A stretch of 64,000 bases of DNA from Bryopsis sp. KO-2023 (lineage: Eukaryota > Chlorophyta > Ulvophyceae > Bryopsidales > Bryopsidaceae): assembly GCA_030272585.1 (NCBI GenBank), contig BSYQ01000007.1:1306001-1370000 (forward strand). Reading direction: 5' to 3'. Position numbers and translations under genes: made by a program. Each line of letters begins with the position of its first letter. Within the stretch, counting starts at the first letter, position 1. The notes beneath the pieces are model-generated. The model saw only the letters and a list, made by a program, of their open reading frames with translations, made no database searches and was not told where the DNA came from. Positions 11,548 to 60,280 of the stretch are shown here, one piece after another.

Positions 11548-13052
11548 CTAAGCTTCGCATTGTGGAGTTTCTCCGAGCTCCAAAGTGATGTCGTCCTTGC
11601 ATTTGCCACATCCAGGGAGGACAGATTCGCAAAGCACGCACTCGTAAGGCCAGCCGACGTCCTCCCTCTGTCTGAAGTAACCAGGAAGGCAAGCGTCGCA
11701 ACCGTCCAGGTCGACGCAAGAGCCCTCACCGCAGGACTTGTCGCAGGGTTGGCAACCGCGGACCTCGACCTTCTCCATGAAAAACTCGCCAACAGGGCAA
11801 GCTCCCTGCGAAAACACCAAGACCGTGTTTCGTCAACAAAGCATTCCACTTGAGCGCACACCTTCCAGTTTTGCAGTGTTACAAAAACAATGATAAAAAA
11901 GGACCAGCCTGGGCGACACTCGTACCACACTTACAGGTGCTTCAGGCTCCACAGGTTCTGGGACGACCTGGACCTCGACCTCAGGAACTGGCTCCTCGGG
12001 AACAGGCTCCTCAACTGGGGTCTCAGGAACAGGCTCCACAGGCTCGGGGACGACCTCGACCTCGACCTCAGGGACTGGCTCAACAGGGACTGGCTCAACA
12101 GGGACAGGCTCTTCAGGGATTGGCTCTGCGGGGGAGGGAGCAGGGGCAGTGGCCTCCTCCTCTGGGACCACGACAGCCTCGACGACGGGTTCCTCAACGA
12201 TTGGAGGCTCAGCAGGGACAGTCACGCTCTTGACCTCAGGAACGTCCGCTTCGCACTCCTTGGTGTCTCCGATCTGCTTGAAGCCCTCAGGGCAAGTGAA
12301 AGGAACGTCCTCTTCGCACTCCTCAGTGTCTCCGATCTGCTTGAAGCCCTCAGGGCAAGTGAAAGGAACATCTTCTTCGCACTCCTCAGTGTCTCCAATC
12401 TGCTTGAAGCCCTCGGGGCAGACGAAAGGAACGTCTTCTTCGCACTCCTCAGCAGTTCCGATCTGCTTGAACCCCTCAGGGCACACGAAAACCTCAGGAA
12501 CCTTTTCGCACTCCATAAGGTCTCCGATCCTCGTGAAGCCCTCCGGGCACGCGAAAGCGCACACAGTCTTTCCGTCTGGGCCCTCCTGGGCAACCGTTGT
12601 CTCTGGGCATGCAGAGAATACGCAGACGAGCTTTCCGTCTGGACCCTTCTCAAGAATCTCCCATTCTTCGCATTTTCCTTTCTTTTTATTAATGCACTTG
12701 AAATATCCGTTGTCGGCACTGACAACAACCTTTCCCGCGCCACACTTGGGTTTTCTTACCACCTTCAGACTGTGGTTTCTGGGTTCATAAAATTTCACCA
12801 CCTTGCTGGCAGGCCTGAAGTCCAGTGCGACAAAGTCGAGAGCACTGCTCTTCACAGATGAGTAAGAGGACAGGTCTCTTACTGCGCCCACCTGCAGGAC
12901 CATTGCGAAACCCGACGTCACAACCCAACGCAATTTACAGTATAGTTGAACGAGACTGCGATACCAAAAAAACCGACAGCAAGCACGGCTGCCCTTACCG
13001 CAACAATAGCGGCCAGTAGGGCGAGTGAGATTGCCACACCACGAGAGCCCAT
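11548..13052 (-). CDS. secreted Cys-rich repeat protein with Pro/Glu/Val linker
   Basis: Three exons (13052-12999, 12891-11935, 11805-11548), all whole codons, give 422 residues. Exon 1 encodes only a signal peptide (MGSRGVAISLALLAAIVA) ending at a gtaagg donor. The mature part has two related Cys-rich units (around CEEWEILEKGPDGKLVC), then five tandem copies of CPEGFKQIGDTEECEEDVPF. A long acidic linker of V-E-P-V-P type follows, and a C-terminal Cys-rich module (GCQPCDKSCGEGSC ... CVLCESVLPGCGKC) resembles furin/growth-factor-receptor Cys repeats. I infer an extracellular or wall/scale-associated protein; no enzyme domain is seen. The repeats vary little at DNA level, which suggests recent duplication. 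Longer minus-strand frames starting before 13052 begin in the non-coding frame of the intron. Confidence 0.78.
12232..12549 (-). repeat. tandem 63-nt coding repeat (about 5 copies)
   Basis: Copies of a 63-nt unit encode CPEGFKQIGDTEECEEDVPF plus one residue. The central three are nearly identical in DNA; the outer two have diverged (CPEGFTRIGDLMECEK and a final copy ending ECEADVPEV). Confidence 0.85.
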
Positions 13053-13233
13053 GCTTGCAGCAACAGCTCAACTTCACAGCCAACTGAACCGGACCACAAA
13101 TACTTCAGCAACGGAAATGCGCGTGGCTTTCCGACAGGGGCAAGGTAGGGTATGCTGGAAAAACGAAAGGTGAGAGAATGGCAATACGAAAGTCCATGCT
13201 GTGGACTCTGGAAAAAATGCGCTCAGGTTGGAG

Positions 13234-27557: not shown

Positions 27558-30500
27558 ATGATGGCTGGCGGGGATGGACGCAGAAGGTCGGCACGGACTC
27601 GACAAGAGGAGGTCGTGCAGGCCAAACAGGATTGTCGAATATGCGGAACACCAGCTGGAGAACCGGTAAGTGGAGCGCGCACAGGGTAGATCTATTATTG
27701 CTGCGCAGGCACCAAGACGCTCAAGGAATGGATATCCGATCTGTGAAGAGGGGTGCTGCACAATATATTCTGGCGCTGTTTCAATATTTGAAAAGCCTCT
27801 TTTCCCTTCGGTAGACGCGAAACTTGTTTCTGGCCCGCCACAGGAGTTATTGCCAGACAAAAACAGGCTGCGCATGCAGTCCCAAGCGCGTTTTAGAAAA
27901 CACATTCTCGCTTTTACCCTCATTTCCCCGACCTCCCTTTACTCTTCACAGTTCTGGGACTGTTTTGTATTATCCTGGAGTGGGCGCCACCTTTTTGCGC
28001 TCAGTTGACGATTCTGTAAAACGGCGGCTGTCCTCGAAACTTAAACTGGCAGTTGTGCTCTACAGGAGGGCTCGGAAACGTCACAAGGTAGCGTTGGTAA
28101 AACCTTTAACGCCTATCAAAGCGCCGCCAGAAAGAGCTTGGAGCTGAGCGAACAGGCGATCAGCGGGGTGAAGCGCCGCGAGGGAACTTTGACGAAACTG
28201 CAAGCGGATGTGGAACGGAAGAGGAAGGAGGTGGATGCCGATGTCGAGCGTCTCAAGCGTGACCGCGAGGCGTTATCAGAAAAGTAGGCGTTTTAATTAT
28301 CCCTGCCGCTTGATTCTACTAAGATCCTTTTTAGTCATGGAAAATGAGGGGCTGTGTTTCGAATCTTGAAGGTCCACCCTTTTTTGTTGATGTTTTGGAA
28401 ACTCTGGTCTTTTGTCCAAGTTAATAACTGCATTTTTGGTTCCAGGGAAAAATCTCTTGATGCTCAGTACAAGAAAAGCTTCGAGGATCAAAAGAAGTGA
28501 GTGGCCTATTGAACAATTCATTTTCGTTCATTCTCACCAATTAGACTTACTGATGAGTTCAATATTAAGACATCTGAATTGTGGGGTACCAGTTTTGTTT
28601 TTGTCAGTCAGGATGAAACCTCGCTGTGTGCCGTCATGTCATGTTCGAACAAAATTTTTCCTTTTTGTAATTCTAACCAAATACTAATATGTGTTCACCG
28701 AGACACACAAATAAATACTTTTTTTGCATTTTTGTGGGGAATAAAAAAAACAGACGAGAAGAGCTGTTGGTGAAGAGGGAACACACTGCTGAGAATATGG
28801 CCACTTCTCTGCGAAACAAGGAAACCAGTTTGAGGGAACTGCAACAAGACATCGAAGCCAGGTAAAAACACAACAGACTAGTCCTTTTCCTCCAGCATCT
28901 CTATTTTATATTTACTTCCGTGATTCCAGAGCTTTTTTTCTGTTCACATTGATTGGGCAACTAGATGAGCAAATCCCCCCACCAAAAAAAATAGAAAATC
29001 AAGTGCCCTCAAATTGAGTGGAGGTTTGACCGAACCGTCATGTACAGTAATAGTTTTCGATTCAGTTTTGAGTTTTCTGCAGAAAAGTGTGAGGCCGCCA
29101 CAATTTGTCTGACATTGGATGTGCAGAATTGAAATGCTCGACGGTTAGTAATATCTGTTAATTCTCTTTTTTTTCTCATTCCAGGCTAAAGGCACTCGAG
29201 CTCCGGGACGTAGAAATGAAAGAATCCTACTCAAGGTGATGGCTGGCCTGTATGTCTCACTGAAGGGAAAATTGTTTGAGGGTTTGAATCCTGTAATCAT
29301 ATGTATTATAAAGTAACTGACATTATACACCGTCTGAAAATTGCAGAATATTGCCAATGGATAAGTCTGGCCTTTCTGGAGTGGATTGTGGAGTGGAGTA
29401 GGGGTGCCCTGTATTTATCAACACTAATATGGGGATTATTGTTTCTTGTTTTTTTTCAGGCGAGAAAGGTCTGTTGTTGACAAAGAAGGAAGGCTGCGGG
29501 AAATGGAAAGGGACATACACTCCAGACAGAATGAGCTCTCTGAGCAGAGTCATCGACTCACCCACAGGTTGGTAATTTTTGTCTTATGATGCCGCACAGA
29601 TCGGTGTTATTTTACTTTCTTCGTTTCTACCATTTTTTTGATATACACATGAGCTCGTGAAGTTTCAAGTTTTTATTCGCTGGGGGGGGGGGGGGGGTTG
29701 ATGCACATTTCCTTCATTTTTCAAAGCAAAAAACTGTAAATGTATATACGTATATGTGTTGGTTTGGTGTGTTGTGGATTGCTTGGTGCCAACGTGCTTT
29801 CAATTAATTTTTTCAACTGGTTTGTTTTTCCAGGGAGCAGGAGATCGTGACGAGAGAAAATAGCTTCACGGAAGATATGGCAAAGTAGGCAACAGGGCTG
29901 CTCTGTTGGTCAATTTAGTGTTGACTATCCTGCATTGCTCGTTGAGTCGAAATAAACGACCAGATTTTTAGATGAGATAATTTTTTTGTCAGATTGCTTT
30001 TCATGCAAATAAATTCTGGAGACGTCATCATTTCTTTTTTCCACAAGGTTTAGATTGAAAGTAAAGAGATTGGAATCTGTTCGATCTTTTTTTAAAGAAG
30101 AGACTGGATTTTGAAATGTAGACGAGAGGATGCTATGAGAATTAGAGAGCGAGATGCCCGCCGAATTTTGAGTGATGCCGAAGAGAAATCCAAAGTCTTG
30201 GCAACACAGGAAAAAGAATTCAACGCACGAGAAAAGACCTTCCGAGAACTGGAGCACTCCACCATTCAAGAACTGGAAAGGTAACCCCAACTATCAACGT
30301 ATAATATTTTTTGAGGGTCGATTAAAATCGATCAGTCTTAAAGAAAAAAAAACTTATTTTTAATGCAGCTTATTTCTCATCTCCTTTTTTTTCTTCCTAA
30401 ACACTAGCTTTTGAAAACTCTGAAAAGGATGTTGCATGCAATCAATCAGTATTAATCAAAAAGGAGAAGCTGAAATTTCACACGCTCGGCTCTTTAAAAA

Positions 30501-33500
30501 CTTTCAAATCAAATCTAGGAAGGAGAACCTGTTGATCCAGCGTGAGACTGACGTGGGCGACGCCCAAGAGGAGTTGAGACTGAAAGCTTCTGAGCTGGAG
30601 CGTCTGAGAGAAGAGTTGAACAAAAGAGTTGGCAAGTTTGAGACCAAGGAAAGGGCCTTCGAGTCTGACATGAAGAGAAGGGAGGAATCTGTGTCGACCA
30701 AAGAATCCAGCTTGACTCTCAGAATCCATGAGATCGACCACAAGGAGAAAGACCTTGTCGAAAGAATGTCTGAAGTCCAGAAAAGGTGTTGCTGGTGAAT
30801 GCTTGCTTGGCATTTAATTTCATCTATGTGTTGTGTTTAGGAGTGAAAGAGGGGGGAAAGAGCAAAAAAAAGGAAAAAATGAGAGAGAAAATTTGGTCGT
30901 TTTGGCCTTGAATGGCTCATCAGTGGAATTGTGATATAAAGAATGAACCGAAAAACACAAATTTTTTCATCCCAATAGTATAAGAAAAAGTATGTTATTA
31001 GTATTATAGAACGAATAATATATAATTCTTGTATACATGATTGATAATTTGATTGATGCTCTCACAGGGAATCCGAGTTTGCAGCTCATAGAGACAATAT
31101 TCTGAGAGACTTGGACAGGTGTGAAGTCCACTCGGAAATCTTACGCTCCAGAATGCATTGATTTTGAAAATTGAGCTTCTTACTACACTCAGCAAACGTC
31201 TTCATGACTCGATTGCGTCTGGGTGTGTTTTTTTTCCCACCCCAAGTTTTTCTTGTCTTAATTGGAAGTCGATATTTGAGATGCTGCTGTGAACTATCTT
31301 TTTTTGGCAATGCAGGAGGGAGAGTGCAATTTCTGAGAGAGAGAATTTGGCGAAACGATCCGAATCAGCTGTCGTCGAAAGAGAAAAGGAGGTTCAAGCT
31401 CTTTATGCGGACATCAGGACTAGGCAAGTTTTCGTCCGTGCCTCATGGGCCCTCCTTTTGAAATTGAACCTTTTTCATTTCTTGCGTTCCTGTTGGGTAG
31501 GAATCAGGGTTCTTACATAAAGCCTGGCATTGTGCTTGCGCATATCAGCCTATTGGGGGTTTCTAGAGCAATTATCTGATGGTTTCAACCGCTGCTGTAC
31601 TGGATCGAAATACAATATGCCTGTGTTTTTGTTCCTGAATGCTGACTCATGAGCATACCCGAGCGTGGGTATGTTTTATCTTCTATTTGATGCTGGGGCC
31701 TCAACTTCAGGTTCGGTTGCAGGGAAGAAACCTTCAAGAAGGAGCACTCTGTGTGGAAAATCGAAATCGAGAGGTGATGCTCTTTTGTGAAAAGTGACTG
31801 CTCACATCCACCCGTAGGAAAAACACAAGCCGAGGATTTGGATTGGTGCAAATCTTTTTTTTTTCAATTTTTTTGGCTCCCCCTAAAAATGAGTATGCAC
31901 TTAAAACAAGACTGTGACGTTTTGAGAAGAACATACGTCCAGTTTTCACATTCATAAAGCCAAGAGCAGACGCCATGAAAACTTTTCGGAAATTCAAGAA
32001 TCGTTTTGGAAGATCTTCTAAAGAAAAAAAGTTTTCTGCTTTTTTTTTCTTGTAACTGTGTGAAAAATGACTAATGCCGCTTGATGATTTCTCATTGAAT
32101 GAATTTAGGCGGGAGCATGTGGTTGTGACAAAAGAGGAAAGCATCAAGAGGCTGACGGATATGTCCTCCGAAAAATTGGCATCTCTCAAGACGGCCGAGA
32201 AGGAAATCGAAAACAAGTAGGAATTTGACTGCGATCAAAATTTGGTGGTGGTGCTGCTGGTGGTTTTCACCATCAACAGGTCTCATTTCATTCACTCAGC
32301 TATTTGTTTCCCAGGAGCCCGTCAAAAAAATAAAAATAAAAACTTTTTTCCAAAAGCTGATCCAATCGTTTCTTATTCCAGAATCTGTAGTGCACTTGCC
32401 CCCTACACGAGAATGTTGTTTTTTTTTACCACCACGATCTCTTGAGAAACTTTCCTTAGCAATAGAAATAGATTGTGTTTGAAAACTAGTGTGGCGTGTT
32501 TGTGTTATGGTGTGTTTGTTTGTTTTTTCTACCATGTAGGCGATTGTTGCTCACCCGGGAGGAGGCAGAAATGAAGAGAAGATTGCAAAGGTACTGATTT
32601 ACCACCGCACAGATATTTTTCATGTTTTTTACAAGGTTTTTTCCCACAGATCTGCACCGTTCATCAGTTTTGTGTGGTTTGTTGTGGGACCTCAATTTTT
32701 TTATTTTCTTTTGCTCGAAGCTAGTGAGCCCGTGATTTTTTTTTGTTTTAGTATCTTTTGTTTTATTAATTTGTTAGTATATTTTTTTCATTTCAGTGAT
32801 AAGACCAAGCTTGAGAGGCTGGACCTGGATCTCAAGGAGATGAACAAACGACTGGCAGCTGAAAAGAAAGAGCTGCAAGACTGGGAGGTGGATCTCGCGA
32901 AAAGGTATGTTTCGTCTAAAATGAAGTAGGAACGGCTATTTTTCTTGTTAATGGCATGAAGCATCCCTGGTGATTATGTAATGGTGAGAAAGAAAGAGAG
33001 AGAGAGAGAGCGACAAGGACAGGGTATTTCAGAATATACGTTTTTTGGGGGATTTTTTCTGATGTGTTTCTTTTTTTATGCGTGTCAGTATTTTTTTGTA
33101 CCTCAAAATTATTCAATGACCCTGCTTTACCTTTGTTTTTTTTCTCCTACGGTGGATTTTCTGCAGGGAACAGTCTTTGGGGGAGAAGACTGGGGAGCTT
33201 GACAGAGATATGAGGAGGTGAACTCTTTGTTCATACATTCTGAATAATTTTCTAAACATCTAGATACTACTCTTCAGCATAGTTTGTCTTGTTGTCCCCT
33301 TTTTCTAGCATGATATACGCATGCTAGCTGGTTTTTATTGTAGAGCAAGCATATATAAAATAAAAATAAATAAATGCATTTCGCCCCCTGCTGCTCTGTA
33401 TACTAGACACGCTCAGTGATAACTGAGGGCTTTCTTCTTTGTGTTGTGATATTGATGCATCTCTTTTTTTTGAACAGACGTGAGGACCAGCTGGTTGCTC

Positions 33501-36500
33501 GAGAAACCAAGGTTTTCAAGGCAGAGGAGGAAACGAAGGTCAAATTCAGGAGCCTGAAAGAAACAGAGGAGGATCTTATCAAAAGGTATGGATCCAGTAA
33601 CCCCCCCCCAAAATAAAAATAAAAATAATAAAAATAAAAAAAATAAAAATAAAATTGTCAGTGTGCATTTTGTGAAATGCTTTCTGGTTATGCTATAATA
33701 TGTCTTGGATTGCTTGAGCTGAAAATTTGGCTGCCAGACCTTTTTTTTTCCCAACACTTTGTTTTTTTCTTTTCCATTCAATTTGGGGTCCCTGTAAATG
33801 TACTCAAAAGTGTGTGTTTTTTTTTCCCAATAGGGAACAGATTTTCTTGAAGATGGAGCGTGATCAGACGAAAGACTTGTCAAAGTAAGTATCGACACTT
33901 CTATTTTTTTTTCTCCCTTGGAAGAGAATGGAAGAATGCACCAGTTCAAACATCAGGATGCGGTTTTCTCTCCGATATCTCCTCTACACAAAAAGTAGGA
34001 TAAAATTGGTATCAATTGAAAGAATATTTTAGTCGTGGTGCAATCTGGCTAAGGAAAAAAATGAAAATAAATAAATATATATATATATTTGTATATATCC
34101 GAATCCTTTTTTTTTGGGGGGGGGGGGGGGATTTTAAGAGTGGGCTGTGATCGTATGTGTGTTTGTGATTGATATAGGCGCGGTCGAGCAACCAAGGAAA
34201 AAGAAACCATCCTCGCTGAAAAAGAGCGCACGCTTTCTGTTCGTGAAAGAGAAGTGGAAGCAAGGGAACGCGACATTGGAAAGCGAGCGAGTGAATTCAC
34301 AGATCGAGAGCGCAAAGCAATTGTGACCATCGAAAGGTAAGACCCAACCTAATGAAAATCTCTTGCTAAAAAAAGTCTATGTATAATACTGAGAGCTGAT
34401 ATTTCTGCCTCGTTGCAAACAGTATCTGTTGATCTATCTATCTATATATATATATATATATATTTTTTTTATCGGAGTTCTTTTTTATTTCATTGCTGAT
34501 TTGTTTTTGAAAAATTGAGTGAGCTGGTGCAAACAGGCGTGAAGGGGATGTCGCTACCCGTGAAAGGAAGTTGAGAAAAGATGAGACCACCATCAAGGAA
34601 AAGCAAACGCTTTTGGAGCAGCTGCAAGAGGATCTTCAGGGAAGGTGACAAATATAATAATAATTATTATTCTTATTGGGCTAAATCACGTCGTCGTGGA
34701 CGACCTTCGTTGGGCAAGTTTTGCCTAATGTAAATTGAACATTCATTCAATTTTTATTATTATATATATAATTCCAGCTCAGCTTAAAGCTTGGCATTAA
34801 GATCATGGCTGTTGATCTTTGTGCATGGATCCCCCCCCAAAAAAAAAATTGAAAAAATCAAAGACACTGTTGCACAGTGATGGTGGGTTATTTTTTATTA
34901 TTTTTTTTATTTTTTTTCACTGATACTGTTGATTCAAAAAATTGATGAAGCGTGTGGATTGGTCAGGGAGAAAGAGTTCGTTGTGAAGCGAGATCGTACC
35001 CTGAAGGAAATTGAGAGGTAACATTGTGGCAGTATCACCTATTCTCAGAATTGCTGTTGGTTGCATGTTTTACAGATGGTATGAATTTTTGGAAAAAACA
35101 AATTATGTAGTGCTGTAGCTCTGAAGATCGTTGATCTGAAAGATGCTCAAAACTTACAGGCTTAAATTTCGTGCGAATTTTTTTTTTTGGCTGGATTCTG
35201 TCAGCAATGTTTCTTGATCGCATTGGTTTATTTTTTTTGGTGTTTGTGAATAGGCGAGATCGTGAGCTCCGAAGCTCTGAGACTGACATCGGGAAGAGGA
35301 TGAGGGAGTTGAGAGAGAGGGAAGAAGACATCGGAAAAATCAACAACGATTTGAAAATCAGACTGGAGAGCATCGAGCAAAGAGAACTGAAAGTCTCCAC
35401 CGTGCTTGACAAGTAGGATTTTGAAAAAATAAAGAAAGTATGATTTAAGGGGGGGAAATTCGAAAAAGTAGGATGCTTAAGGAGGTCCTTTAATTTAAAA
35501 AAAAAAAGGAACAAAATCAAGAAAGAGAATGAATGGTATCAAAACATGTGATAATTTCTTGATGCTAAGAATTCTCGTGCTTGTTTTGTCTGTGATTTTT
35601 TTTTAGAGAGAAGAGGTTGGAAGATAGGGAGAGAGTTGTGCAGAGGTGAGCGAAAAATTTCATTTTTCAGACAGTGCATGAAACATTCTAACCACTTGTG
35701 CATTATTTAGGCTCGATATCGACCCTGGCTAAGAAGTTCTGGTGTATCGCATTTGTCCCACAGGAAATACCAGGAAATTCAAAACCGCGAAAGCGAAATT
35801 GCTGCTCGAGAAGATGCGACAAGAAGTCTGGAAAGAAATTTGAACGTGCAACTCAAAGACCTTGATGGAAGGTGCAAACTTTTAAGTGAAAACTCTGGTT
35901 TGGTGAATTCTTTCCTCCCGGTGGAAAATGCAAGATATCAATCTTCAGTCTATCTATTTTATTTTTTTTGAGAAGATCATGAGCTGAGTTTTAGTATCAT
36001 TGAGTTGAATAATGCACGTCACATGTGCGCCGAAATTTTGTTTATTTTTAGCTTTAAAGTTTTGTGTTCTGATTGCTCAGAGAGAGAAAAGTTGCCTCTC
36101 AAGAGAAGCGGCTGTCAGTTGAAATCGAGCGACGAGAAACTATTGTTCGCCGATTGGAGATGGAAGTCAAGAACGCCAAGGGCACCATCGACTCCCGTGA
36201 GAAAAAATTGACAGACCGTGAGGAGGAAGTCACGAAGAGGTATTTTCTCCTTCTATTTCTTGCAATACCCCTCCAATATCTTTTGACATAAAAATCAGTG
36301 CTGGAAACAATGTCATGATGTGCAGAGATCCAGTGGCACATATATATATATATATACTTAAGTATATAGGAGGCGGTGGCTTCCTCAAAGGTCGATGTAA
36401 GGTTTTTCCCTATCTCTGTGATCCAGGGAGAATGTGATGTTTTCGAGAACTGCAGAGATGGATCGACGGGAGGAGAGATTGTCCAGTCAAGAGTCGAAAC

Positions 36501-38770
36501 TGAGGGCTTTCGAGGCCGGATTGAAAGATAAAGAGAGCTATCTGGAGGATTACAGAAGGTAAAATCGAATTCTCATTTAATCTGCATGCATGTATGTGCA
36601 TCTCGAAAACGTCCATATCCAGTCGCATCTTTCGCACATGCATTCTGTCATGCATGCATGTAAGCATGTTGAAGATGTCATGCAGTTTCACCACCGAAGC
36701 CGTCCCACCAGGAGGCAATGATATCAGTGATATATTTTGATGGATCGACTCTACCATTATGTTTCAGGGACATCACTAGCCGTGAAGAGAACTACTTGCA
36801 GAAGGAAAAGATTTCCAGGACAGATCTTGAGAAACGCGAGAGGGTCGTTTCCGGAAAAGAGAGGGAACTGGCTGACTTGGAAAACGAAGTGAGGAGGAGA
36901 GAGCGCCACTGGCAGGAACAGAAGGAACTCATAGAATCCAAAAAGGCAGAGATGTTTTCCATTCAAGAAAGGGTAAGAATGATGCAGGATGAACCAATCG
37001 AATGAGTCTTTCTGTTTTTTACTCCCCCCCCCCCCTAAAAAAAAAAAAAAAAGGAAAGTTGGGAAGAACAACCATAGTATGTGTTAGGTTTCTTGAGGGC
37101 ATTTGCTTTTTTCCTGAGTGTATTTCCTGCTCCTACTATCGTCCCCTTTTATGCTGGTCCATTGTTCAAATGGGCGTTTCATTGTTTCACATGCACGATG
37201 ATAAATTGATGGTTTAATTGCATGCATGTCGAATGTGGGAAACATAGATGATGAAGGATCTGAAGAGAAGGGAAAAGCGCATCGAGGATTTGGACAGAAT
37301 GATCAAACAACGCGAAATTTCTTTGAGAGAAGCTGAAAGGCAGCTCCGGGACTACGAAGGAGATATCGTTCGCAGGGCCAAATATTTCCTGAGGCGGAGA
37401 ACGCACGACGATGTTGTCCAGGAAAGCGATGATCCAGGTGAGCTGCCAAAAACGAAACATTGAAATCAGTTTCCAAGCAATCAACAGTTTTCACACCCAA
37501 TAAAAGTAACAAATTTCGCACAAGATTGATTTTTTTTCCCAGTTTTGTGTCGGTTTGTTCATTGAAAATTTCAAATTCGTGTTGCTTCAAATTTTCGATG
37601 AACAGATTTGGATTCTGTAGGTAACATGCAGCTTGGACATGTTGGACATGTGCATGTTGGGGCGGCTTCTGGCGAAAGGTCGGAGGGGGACAGCGATGTG
37701 AGGGGGTGGTATGGAAAGATGCGAAACATTCTGTTTGGATGGAAGCCTACTGATGCAGAAACCCCGAGGACGGCTGAAGAGCTGGAAAGAACAGGCACCG
37801 AGCTGCGAAAAGTCGGAGATGAGCTGGAGCAGAGGGAACTGTTTGTTAGCGCCAGGGAGGATGAGATGAACCAAAGGTAAAAAATGAATAAATAAACTGT
37901 TTTCGCAAAGGTAAAAAATGAATAATCAAACTGTTTACGAGAACATAATGTTAGATATCTCACAATAAAAAAATATACATATCATGCATGGAGGATGAGA
38001 TGAACAAAAGGTAAAAAATAAAAAATAAATGAATGGATAAAGTTCTTACGAGAACATGATGTTAGATCTGGTCTGTTGGTTCAAAAGACAAGCCATATGG
38101 CAGCCAGAGGAGTGAAAAAAGTACCAAACAATTCTGGTTGGGCTGTGCTTCTATTTTCAGACTTCAGACCGAGGGCTACCCATCCAATCCTCAAAGAAAG
38201 AGGCCTTCCCCAAGTTTGGGCGACAGTGGGGGGATCGGAGGTGTTTTTGACTTGAGCAAGCGAACCAGAATCGGAGGCCGCCATGACGACACAGCAAGGG
38301 CCCCAGGTAGATGGAGGAGAACTCTTTCTGGGGATTTGAGGACGCTTGGTGGCCAAAGAGATACCTCTGATGGCCTGGAGACGTTTGGGGCAATCGAAGC
38401 GACCAGGAGAGTTGCTGTAAGCTGCTCACGAGTGGGAAATATCCTTTGCTTGAAATGTGTGTGTGTGGGGGGGGGGGAGATCAGCATTTCAAGAACCGAG
38501 ATGATTGATTTTTTGTACATGGTGCAGGGACAACGAGAGGGCAGCGAAGATTGGAATGACTGGAGCGACCGGTTGCGTCAAACCAGCAAGATCAGGGCTA
38601 CTACATATACCAGAACCACCACCAAGACTCACACTATGATTGGGGGCTCCAAGAATGAAACTCCAGCCGGCCCAAGCAATGTCGACAAAGGACCAGAGGT
38701 GGTTGAGATAGACACTGGTGCTGAACCGAGAGTTGAGGGGCCTACTGATACTGACAAGCAGGGAGGTTGA
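27558..38770 (+). CDS. giant modular coiled-coil protein, 31 exons, ~1295 residues
   Basis: Unrecognised protein, Glu/Arg/Lys-rich coiled coil from about residue 60 to 950. Exons: 27558-27665, 28066-28283, 28446-28496, 28754-28861, 29185-29235, 29460-29567, 29834-29884, 30122-30280, 30519-30785, 31068-31118, 31316-31423, 31723-31773, 32109-32216, 32540-32590, 32797-32904, 33167-33217, 33478-33585, 33834-33884, 34178-34336, 34537-34644, 34967-35017, 35254-35412, 35607-35645, 35764-35871, 36081-36239, 36427-36558, 36768-36972, 37248-37437, 37606-37876, 38161-38416, 38528-38770. Their sum is exactly 1296 codons. Most coil exons are 51 or 108 nt, or 159/267 (fusions), all cut in phase 2 inside Arg/Lys codons. 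The N-terminus is basic with CRICGTPAGEP; the tail is disordered and Ser/Thr-rich. I infer a filamentous or scaffold protein (nuclear or cytoskeletal). Confidence 0.85.
37856..38067 (+). repeat. duplicated exon end/splice donor inside intron
   Basis: The last bases of exon 37606-37876 plus its donor (GAGGATGAGATGAACCAAAG then gtaaaaaatg) recur within the following intron at about 37990-38019 with one change. A shorter piece (caaaggtaaaaaatgaataa) recurs at 37906-37925. The segment acgagaacataatgttag at about 37937 is repeated at about 38048. These are imperfect direct repeats. Confidence 0.75.
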
Positions 38771-58350: not shown

Positions 58351-60280
58351 TCAAGAACACACTTGGTCGTCTTCCACCGCAACACTCTCTACTTTCATCC
58401 TTTTCCCCGAATGAACGGGGGAATCTGGATCACTTAATCTCTTCGTCCCCGAACTCACTTCCACTTTCTCTCCGATCGGCTCAGGTGCCTCCTCAACAAC
58501 AGGTCCAGGTTTCTTCGCTGATTCTCCATCAGTTTCAGCACTCGCCACTGCACTATCCCCCACAGTCTCCCCAACCTCAACAATAGCTTCCTCTTCGACT
58601 TTAATGCTCTCCAGTGGAGCCAGTGCACTGTCTATTCTCACTATATCCTCCGGAATATCTGGTGTGTCGACCCCAGTCCCAGCACCTTCCCCAGCAGCCG
58701 TTGGTTTCTCGGACTCTGTCGGTTTTTCGGAATCTGTGGCGGGCACTTTTGCAGGCTCATCTCCAGATGCAATCACAGGCGTCCTCTGGTTGCTGCAGTT
58801 ATTTGGGGACTTAGCCCAATTGCTGGCGGCCTGTTTAAATGCCTCCCTGTGATCCAAATCTGGATGTTCGGATTTGATTCTTTTCACTTCCCGGCTCATG
58901 AACAAGTTGTACGGTGAGGGGTTACGAGGCTTGGTCCCAGTTTTGTCCTTTTTCTTTCTGCGAACGGCTCCGAAGCGGTTTTCACGGATTCCCTGGTTGA
59001 AGTGCTTGGGGGAGTGTTCATCGAAACCTCCGAAGTGAGTTGAGGAATATGGCGACCCAGCAGAATGAGGTTGGAGATCCGATGCATGAAATGGATTCAC
59101 AAACGGCTCCATATGTCCAACATACCCTGGTCGCATCTACAGAACACAGATTTCTGTTCATCAGCTACCACAGCATTTCAAACGAGAAGTGGGCTTTCAG
59201 CATCGATGGATCCATTGGATTTGAAAGAATGTGTAAGTATGGATGCCACGTTGATTTGATTAGCCCACCTGATGCCCGGATAAGTTGTGGTAGCGCGACA
59301 AGGGTGGAGGCTGAACGAGATGGTTCGTTAACGACAGCGATCTGGGATCTTGTCCTGGAACTGAAGGATGGTGGTGGTGGTAATGCGAGCGATGGGGCAT
59401 GTGAGGTGTTTGTGCAGCCATCTATCAATCAAAAGGCAAAAAACTCATTGAAAATCAGGCAACACAATGCATCATCTTACGCATTCAGCAGGGTCGAAAC
59501 GGTTTTCACAATTTTTGAAACCCGATGTTCGTTCTCAAGAGGAGTAATTGCCATACCTGAAACGACTGGTGGGCCTGAGCCTGCCGCTGTGCGTACCCAT
59601 GGTTCACCGCAGTCAAGTTGACTTCCAGCAACCTGAATAAAATCATTGACATTTCTCAGTTTCATTAACTGAAAGGTCTTGTCAAATATCCAGCTCAGAT
59701 ATCCTCCAGTTCCAGACATAATGGGCCTTTTCGTGTTCACCTGTGGCAGCTTCCACAGCTGACAATCACAGGAGTGCCTTCTGGGCAATCAGAGGAAACA
59801 GCTACCTGTGGCAACCAGCAAAGAATATATAAGCAGGGGGTCACCACAACAGAAACCAGTTGAGGCGTGTTGCCCACAGAAAAAATCGGACTTTAAATCG
59901 AGCGAAATTCTCGAAATGCAAGAGGTGGACTTTCAAGTCCCCTTGTTGCGAACAAAGTTTTTTCTGATGGACGGTGGGGTCTCCATCACTCGGCCAGCTA
60001 CGCAAACGAATCAAGATACCCAACGCACAAGCCTGGAGCTACGAAGCGATTCGTGGAATCATCGCAAGAAATCAACCTCGATTCCCGCAATTGCAGCTCA
60101 CTGTCGTTAACCCCAAGTCGACAAGCCCAACATTATGGATAGCCTCGAGTAAAAAAACCCGTCCTCGTCCCATGCCCTTACCTCAAGAAGAGCTCTACAG
60201 TCTTTCGCTTCACATTGGACTCGCACGCTGGTCGGCCTGGCCGCCACCGGTTCGCCATTGTTTTGGAAAAAAGCTGCCAT
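58351..60280 (-). CDS. YABBY: YABBY-type transcription factor
   Basis: Complete YABBY architecture in five exons (60280-60182, 59805-59741, 59632-59557, 59421-59269, 59136-58351), 393 codons in phase. The N-terminal zinc finger reads VQCEAKDCRALLEVAVSS then VIVSCGSCHRLLEVN: Cys23/28 and Cys50/53, with the downstream LLxVN of plant YABBYs. The first Cys pair is spaced by four residues rather than two. The C-terminal HMG-like YABBY domain (about residues 202-243) reads RNPSPYNLFMSREVKRIKSE, HPDLDHREAFKQAASNWAKS, very close to land-plant YABBYs. Between them is a His/Pro/Ser-rich linker; a long acidic tail with a KRMK cluster follows. YABBYs are DNA-binding factors of leaf polarity in seed plants. 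YABBY-like genes have been reported in some prasinophytes, from memory. The role here is unknown. Confidence 0.88.

What the first reader, a model, noticed from the sequence alone, without database searches (positions are those of the whole stretch)
28446..36239. Coiled-coil gene built from alternating 51-nt and 108-nt exons (17 + 36 residues)
Nine exons are exactly 51 nt and eight exactly 108 nt. Four are 159 (=51+108) and one 267 (=108+51+108), alternating almost without error over 7.8 kb. Every one is bounded by phase-2 introns inside an AG|G or AA|G codon. The unit is therefore 53 residues, which equals six heptads plus one hendecad, so each unit carries one stutter in the coil. The sequence has diverged, but the exon frame has been kept. 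This suggests growth by duplication of an exon pair, with some introns later lost (159, 267) and one unit trimmed (39 nt at 35607). I do not recognise the protein; it could be an undescribed filament or ruler-like scaffold whose length is set by exon copy number.
Basis: partly seen in the sequence, partly recalled or inferred. Interest (0 to 1): 0.85.

Follow-up and report, generated by a model that had tools for sequence, protein, structure and literature searches.

The report
Coiled-coil rod from repeated exon pairs
A gene in an alga encodes a very long helical rod protein that appears to have grown by repeatedly copying one pair of small exons (17 + 36 residues), much as animal collagen genes are thought to have grown from small repeated exons.

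Summary
All 24 introns in or ending the repeat are phase 2 and lie at module edges. The protein also repeats at lags 53, 106, 159 and 212, although units share only 21% identity. The hydrophobic period is 3.53 = 53/15; one stutter per unit lies in the 51-nt exon, heptads in the 108-nt exon. No proline occurs at residues 37-1038.

Corrections: the repeat starts earlier (28174); degenerate units continue to about 37,370, out of step with exons; one 159 is 51+108; the 39-nt exon is 13 extra residues where a 36-module is missing; 7 of 26 phase-2 junction codons are not AG|G or AA|G.

Best reading: a coiled-coil rod of roughly 117-142 nm that grew by duplicating an exon pair and later lost some introns, an alpha-helical parallel to collagen's exon rule. 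Transcripts, homologues, assembly and cellular role are untested.

The parts
27558..38770 (+). Whole gene model, 30 exons, 1,327 aa (1,290 aa if an intron at 38417-38527 is real)
   Evidence: Length-blind gene finder; translation; alternative end
27558..27665 (+). Exon 1: basic head with one CxxC (CRIC); followed by a phase-0 intron
28066..28283 (+).
   Evidence: weak: left-out profile score -3.1
28446..36239 (+). Repeat block: 14 seventeen-residue and 14 thirty-six-residue modules plus one 13-residue piece in 23 exons, all introns phase 2
28446..28496 (+). First 51-nt exon (type example: holds the hendecad)
   Evidence: 0 and 1 mismatches in the two C13 fragments
28754..28861 (+). First free-standing 108-nt exon (type example: heptads only)
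30122..30280 (+). 159-nt exon = 108+51; no intron at the inner edge, which reads CG|A
30519..30785 (+). 267-nt exon = 108+51+108; no introns at two inner edges; 88 whole codons modelled as one helix, pLDDT 96.8
31316..31423 (+). 108-nt exon with a GC donor (AG|gcaagt)
34178..34336 (+). 159-nt exon = 108+51; inner edge CG|A
35254..35412 (+). 159-nt exon = 108+51; inner edge AG|A
35607..35645 (+). 39-nt exon: 13 extra residues where a 36-residue module would be expected
36081..36239 (+). 159-nt exon = 51+108, opposite order to the other three; inner edge CG|A
36427..37437 (+). Exons 26-28 (132, 205, 190 nt): degenerate 53-residue units (best starts residues 860, 913, 966) out of step with the exons
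   Evidence: no proline before residue 1039
37621..38770 (+). Tail exons 29-30; possible intron 38417-38527 in exon 30; acceptor of exon 29 may be 37606 instead
   Evidence: exon 30 modelled at pLDDT 35

Best explanation
The gene encodes one very long, nearly uninterrupted alpha-helical rod with a short basic head and a flexible tail. The rod most likely pairs with a second copy as a parallel coiled coil. Its repeat is 53 residues (about 7.9 nm at the recalled helix rise of 0.1485 nm): a 51-nt exon encodes the one hendecad (stutter) and a 108-nt exon encodes only heptads. The rod grew by duplication of that exon pair together with both phase-2 introns, perhaps partly as blocks of two pairs (106 residues); introns at about seven edges were later lost. 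Gaining or losing a whole pair keeps the hydrophobic stripe in step (spacing 7); losing one exon alone would make it 8 or 6, which would tend to keep pairs together. Shown by sequence: exon model (by computation), protein repeat, stutter position, intron placement, lack of proline. Inferred: pairing, order of events, selection for pairs. Most likely role, inferred only: subunit of a cytoskeletal or nuclear filament or scaffold.
For: Same exon list at 6 of 8 length-blind settings. Autocorrelation 0.61, 0.50, 0.50, 0.42 at lags 106, 53, 212, 159; shuffled mean at lag 53 is -0.34, sd 0.08. Mean pair score 41.6 against 12.4 (sd 1.5) when each unit keeps its hydrophobic pattern and the rest is shuffled. 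Fourier peak at 3.53, power 9.5, against at most 2.3 in 1,000 shuffles. 24 of 24 introns at module edges. Left-out profile scores positive for 12 of 13 whole units. Intronless edges lack AG/AA in 4 of 7 cases against 0 of 23 with an intron, P 0.0013. Even separations more alike than odd, P 0.007. Exons 93-100% identical to two 5' fragments on contig C13, introns 85-92%; P 4e-6 for one of the two. 88 residues modelled as one helix, pLDDT 96.8.
Against: No transcript evidence. Introns of like kind share no sequence: one 27-nt match among all introns, E 0.006, so their copying is not seen directly. Module edges were defined from exons, and the finder favours AG before a donor, which weakens both P values on introns. 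Left-out scores are negative for one whole unit (480), for 36-modules at 73 and 497 and for 17-modules at 109, 162, 480 and 745. Lags 46 and 60 also score 0.32 because of the heptads. The even/odd signal is in 36-modules (P 0.012), not 17-modules (P 0.39), and is uncorrected for the number of things tried. The unit at 745-810 and exons 26-28 break the rule. No charge-based stagger stood out. The helix model used one sequence alone.
Confidence: 0.72

Rival explanations
1. The protein repeat came first as intronless tandem copies of 159 nt, and introns were inserted later and in parallel at the same two sites of each copy.
For: Introns sit in arginine, lysine or serine codons that resemble proto-splice sites (16 of 24 at AG|R); like introns share no sequence; 7 of 30 edges lack an intron.
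Against: It needs 23 separate insertions at two homologous places while 200 other AG|R sites of the repeat stayed empty. 4 of 7 intronless edges read CG|, as expected after intron loss, though also if AG was never there.
Confidence: 0.15
2. An ordinary long coiled-coil gene in which equal exon lengths are chance or come from choosing splice sites to fit.
For: The coding sequence is rich in splice-like sites (219 AG|R in the repeat), and gene-finder output depends on the intron penalty.
Against: A finder with no length term gives the same lengths at 6 of 8 settings; the protein repeats at 53.
Confidence: 0.03
3. A lamin-like nuclear filament protein of the plant NMCP/CRWN kind or reached independently: basic head, long Arg/Glu-rich rod, tail with a basic NLS-like stretch.
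For: Same head-rod-tail plan; tail holds NPQRKRP and an acidic stretch near its end. The likeness of rod composition is recalled only.
Against: No [RQ]xYNLR match in the protein, the motif of NMCP1-type tails (passages of PMC8483785; NMCP2 lacks it too). NMCP genes are reported absent from chlorophytes (same passages) and CRWN from Chlamydomonas and Volvox (passage of PMC3922879).
Confidence: 0.15
4. Component of a flagellar root or other striated fibre, working like SF-assemblin, where a short repeat with one register step sets the axial spacing.
For: SF-assemblin rods also repeat a heptad block with one extra step, 29 residues (passages of PMC8435291). SF-assemblin matches over the cut-off lie elsewhere in this genome (C9:441517-441714 and 444005-444178), so such fibres may exist here.
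Against: No Pfam match of this protein to SF-assemblin at E up to 0.1; repeat length and kind of step differ; the genome has its own SF-assemblin.
Confidence: 0.2

Closest known systems
Fibrillar collagen genes (54/45-bp exon rule)
   Same: A rod gene whose exons are 54 or 45 bp or fused multiples (99, 108, 162 bp), explained by duplicating a 54-bp exon and then a 54+45 pair, with length added only in increments that suit the helix (passages of PMC2852846 and PMC4450265).
   Different: Alpha-helical coiled coil rather than Gly-X-Y triple helix; introns inside codons (phase 2) rather than between whole codons; pair is 51+108; an alga rather than animals.
SF-assemblin (striated fibre protein of green algae)
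   Same: Coiled coil with one register step per short repeat (passages of PMC8435291).
   Different: 29 residues with a skip against 53 with a stutter; no Pfam match; exon structures not compared.
Plant nuclear lamina proteins NMCP/CRWN
   Same: Long coiled-coil rod with a tail carrying an NLS (passages of PMC8483785); here a basic NLS-like stretch.
   Different: No [RQ]xYNLR motif; family reported absent from chlorophytes; rods not compared.
Lamins and other intermediate filament proteins
   Same: Long coiled-coil rod that includes stutters (recalled).
   Different: No Pfam Filament match; C-terminus KQGG is no CaaX box; here one stutter per unit.

Membership tests
Fibrillar collagen | Gly-X-Y triplets | tested here: not met
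   Repeat rod has 14 Gly and 0 Pro in 791 residues
Fibrillar collagen | Repeated exon pair of two fixed lengths with fused exons | tested here: met
   51+108, fused 159 and 267; likeness of plan, not kinship
SF-assemblin (PF06705) | Pfam profile match | tested here: not met
   Whole protein at E up to 0.1: only UBA_HYPK, E 0.017, 14.9 bits against a cut-off of 27
SF-assemblin (PF06705) | 29-residue repeat with skip | tested here: not met
   Repeat is 53, period 3.53; lag 29 is not among the 20 highest lags listed
NMCP/CRWN | RYNLRR-type motif of NMCP1-like tails | tested here: not met
   No [RQ]xYNLR match; NMCP2-type members lack it too
NMCP/CRWN | Rod homology to plant members | not testable with these tools
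   No plant protein collection at hand
Intermediate filament / lamin | Pfam Filament rod | tested here: not met
   No match at E up to 0.1
Intermediate filament / lamin | CaaX end (some members) | tested here: not met
   Ends KQGG
Spectrin superfamily | Pfam spectrin repeat match | tested here: not met
   No match at E up to 0.1; the 106-residue length is a coincidence as far as seen
Long coiled coil | Heptad/hendecad hydrophobic period, helix, no proline | tested here: met
Long coiled coil | Oligomerisation | not testable with these tools
   Only single chains were modelled

The most novel reading that the evidence does not exclude
The exon pair is the physical length quantum of the rod. Each pair adds 7.9 nm and exactly one stutter, so only whole pairs can be gained, lost or skipped in splicing without breaking the hydrophobic stripe. 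A cell or lineage could then set filament or spacer length by exon-pair number: an alpha-helical counterpart of the collagen exon rule, in an alga.
Probability: 0.3. Interest if true: 0.75.

Novelty: new variant of a known kind. Interest (0 to 1): 0.58.

Why it matters
Fibrillar collagen is the textbook case of a rod protein whose exon lengths record how the rod grew. Here the same logic appears in a different fold, a coiled coil with one stutter per unit, in an alga. The exon boundaries have outlived most of the sequence likeness (21% mean identity). That makes it a natural test of whether coil register selects which exon duplications survive, and whether such rods change length in whole exon pairs. 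In the ten paper searches made (open-licence PMC papers only) I saw no listing of a coiled-coil gene with this 51/108 exon pattern; that is weak evidence of novelty.

Tried and rejected
Gene finder: (three penalties, not self-trained) lost exons at high penalty; over-predicted because fixed GT/AG bases earned a bonus; one search put this right; one search added GC donors.

Families: Pfam on the whole protein gave only a sub-threshold UBA_HYPK. NCBIfam on residues 1-284 and 977-1327 gave three weak coiled-coil-type matches far below cut-off (FlbB, SMC, TrlF) for the first and none for the second. PHROGs and PADLOC were not searched with this protein. A PDB profile search with 13 units gave 4 chains at E 0.05-0.45, taken as chance.

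Paralogues: search with 931 residues gave 19 matches, 18 in this gene and 1 in a C13 fragment, with 49 of 139 candidates scored, so a distant paralogue is not excluded. A consensus query gave 23 matches, 9 in this gene and 14 elsewhere at E 0.16-9.8; 7 of those 14 lie in open frames of 300 aa or more; their exon structures were not examined. The tail query gave 26, 2 in this gene and 24 elsewhere at E 0.07-1.8.

Charge: balanced (net +1 of 791 residues), no stagger stood out, and staggers of 53n are slightly repulsive. Intron lengths after 17- and 36-modules do not differ (P 0.23). Tail model uninformative (pLDDT 35).

Host: rbcL resembles entries that I recall as green-lineage; polyubiquitin repeats are spaced exactly 228 nt, so they lack the extra junction residue that I recall for Cercozoa; 3 of 4 contig starts read carry CCCTAAA. 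The species was not identified.
Full report
The window is C7:1306001-1370000 of a 91.1 Mb genome in 28 contigs. It is an alga: a plastid-type rbcL lies on C28 and 107 light-harvesting-domain matches were found. The rbcL is closest to PDB chains that I recall as green-lineage (the tool gives no organism). The species is not known.

Exon model. I scored the region with a gene finder that has no exon-length term. With GC donors allowed it returned one list of 30 exon lengths at 6 of 8 settings; the 2 settings at the lowest penalty differed at four places. Earlier versions were penalty-dependent. The model runs from 27558 to 38770 and gives 1,327 aa, or 1,290 aa if a likely intron at 38417-38527 is removed.

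Comparative support. Two broken fragments of the 5' end lie on contig C13. Against them exons 1-4 are 93-100% identical and introns 1-3 are 85-92%; for one fragment this contrast has P 4e-6 (totals worked out by hand). They cover only exons 1-4 and so test two of the repeat exons, not the rest.

Repeat. The spliced protein holds 14 seventeen-residue and 15 thirty-six-residue modules. Its autocorrelation peaks at lags 106, 53, 212 and 159, next 46, 60 and 7. Thirteen whole units share 21% identity on average, range 9-34%, and score 41.6 a pair against 12.4 (sd 1.5) for units shuffled within their own hydrophobic pattern. Left-out profile scores are positive for 12 of 13 whole units, but negative for several single modules.

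Coil. Hydrophobic residues fill position 5 (14 of 14), 12 (64%) and 16 (93%) of the 17-module and 6, 13, 20, 27, 34 of the 36-module (73-100%). Spacings are therefore 7,4,7,7,7,7,7,7 = 53: one stutter per unit, inside the 51-nt exon. Many heptads carry Arg/Lys three and Glu four places after the hydrophobic residue. The Fourier peak is 3.53 = 53/15, power 9.5 against at most 2.3 in 1,000 shuffles. Residues 37-1038 hold no proline, and the 88 whole codons of the 267-nt exon are modelled as one helix at pLDDT 96.8 from a single sequence. At a recalled rise of 0.1485 nm the regular rod is about 117 nm, and about 142 nm with the degenerate part.

Introns against modules. All 24 introns in or ending the repeat are phase 2; 23 lie at 30 module starts and one at the end of the last module. 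Seven starts lack an intron. Of the 7, 4 read CG before the edge, against 0 of 23 with an intron, which all read AG or AA. This fits loss of introns followed by drift between AGR and CGN arginine codons, but the finder favours AG before donors, so it is supporting rather than independent. The simplest history is duplication of a 51+108 pair with both introns, then loss of about seven. Units at even separation are more alike than at odd (P 0.007; 36-modules P 0.012, 17-modules P 0.39), a hint of duplication in blocks of two pairs.

Irregularities. The 39-nt exon adds 13 residues after a 17-module and before a 36-module. Reading the letters, hydrophobic residues there run 749, 756, 759, 766, 773, 780, 787, so the stripe survives with a step of 3 instead of 4. 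After residue 863 degenerate units begin at about 860, 913 and 966, still 53 apart but out of step with the exons.

Kinds. Pfam gives no family. The closest parallel in plan is fibrillar collagen, where exons of 54 and 45 bp, duplicated singly and in pairs and later fused, record growth of a rod (passages of PMC2852846 and PMC4450265). SF-assemblin is the closest algal protein in coil design (29 residues with a skip; passages of PMC8435291), but there is no family match and the genome has its own SF-assemblin. NMCP/CRWN is a possible likeness in plan only (passages).

Function. Nothing here tests it. A filament or scaffold subunit is the most likely role by architecture; nuclear and flagellar-root versions are listed as rivals. 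The ruler idea stays open as the novel case.

Noticed in passing
G000:C13:604232-605428 (+) and C13:690664-689400 (-) (L015, L017): Two broken copies of this gene's first four exons, 86-88% identical over about 1.4 kb, with small deletions and, in one, a stop; the two share further blocks at 89-97% with each other.
   Followed up: partly
window 37853-38067: Imperfect tandem copies inside and beside intron 29, one of which (37987-38025, 90% of 39 nt) repeats the end of exon 29 together with its donor site: a small example of the copying that could multiply exons.
   Followed up: partly
window 31424-31722: GC-AG intron (AG|gcaagt) within the repeat.
   Followed up: yes
G000:C17:134906-198226: Ten matches to ubiquitin at 34-67% identity, in open frames of 145-355 aa within about 63 kb of one contig.
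   Followed up: no
window 58351-59136 (-): Open frame with a YABBY C-terminal domain match (E 2.4e-15, over cut-off) and a weaker HMG-box match; unexpected in an alga as far as I recall.
   Followed up: no
window 11833-13104 (-): Open frame with repeats of CPEGFKQIGDTEECEEDVPF and a Pro/Glu/Val-rich stretch; no Pfam match.
   Followed up: no
G000, 24 places, for example C1:9635971 and C2:665580: Weak matches (E 0.07-1.8) to the tail query, all in open frames of 798-1,916 aa; looks like a repeated element, chance likeness to the query.
   Followed up: no
G000:C4:6122760, 6168305, 6209752: Three light-harvesting-domain matches with identical scores and lengths within 90 kb, probably recent duplicates.
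   Followed up: no
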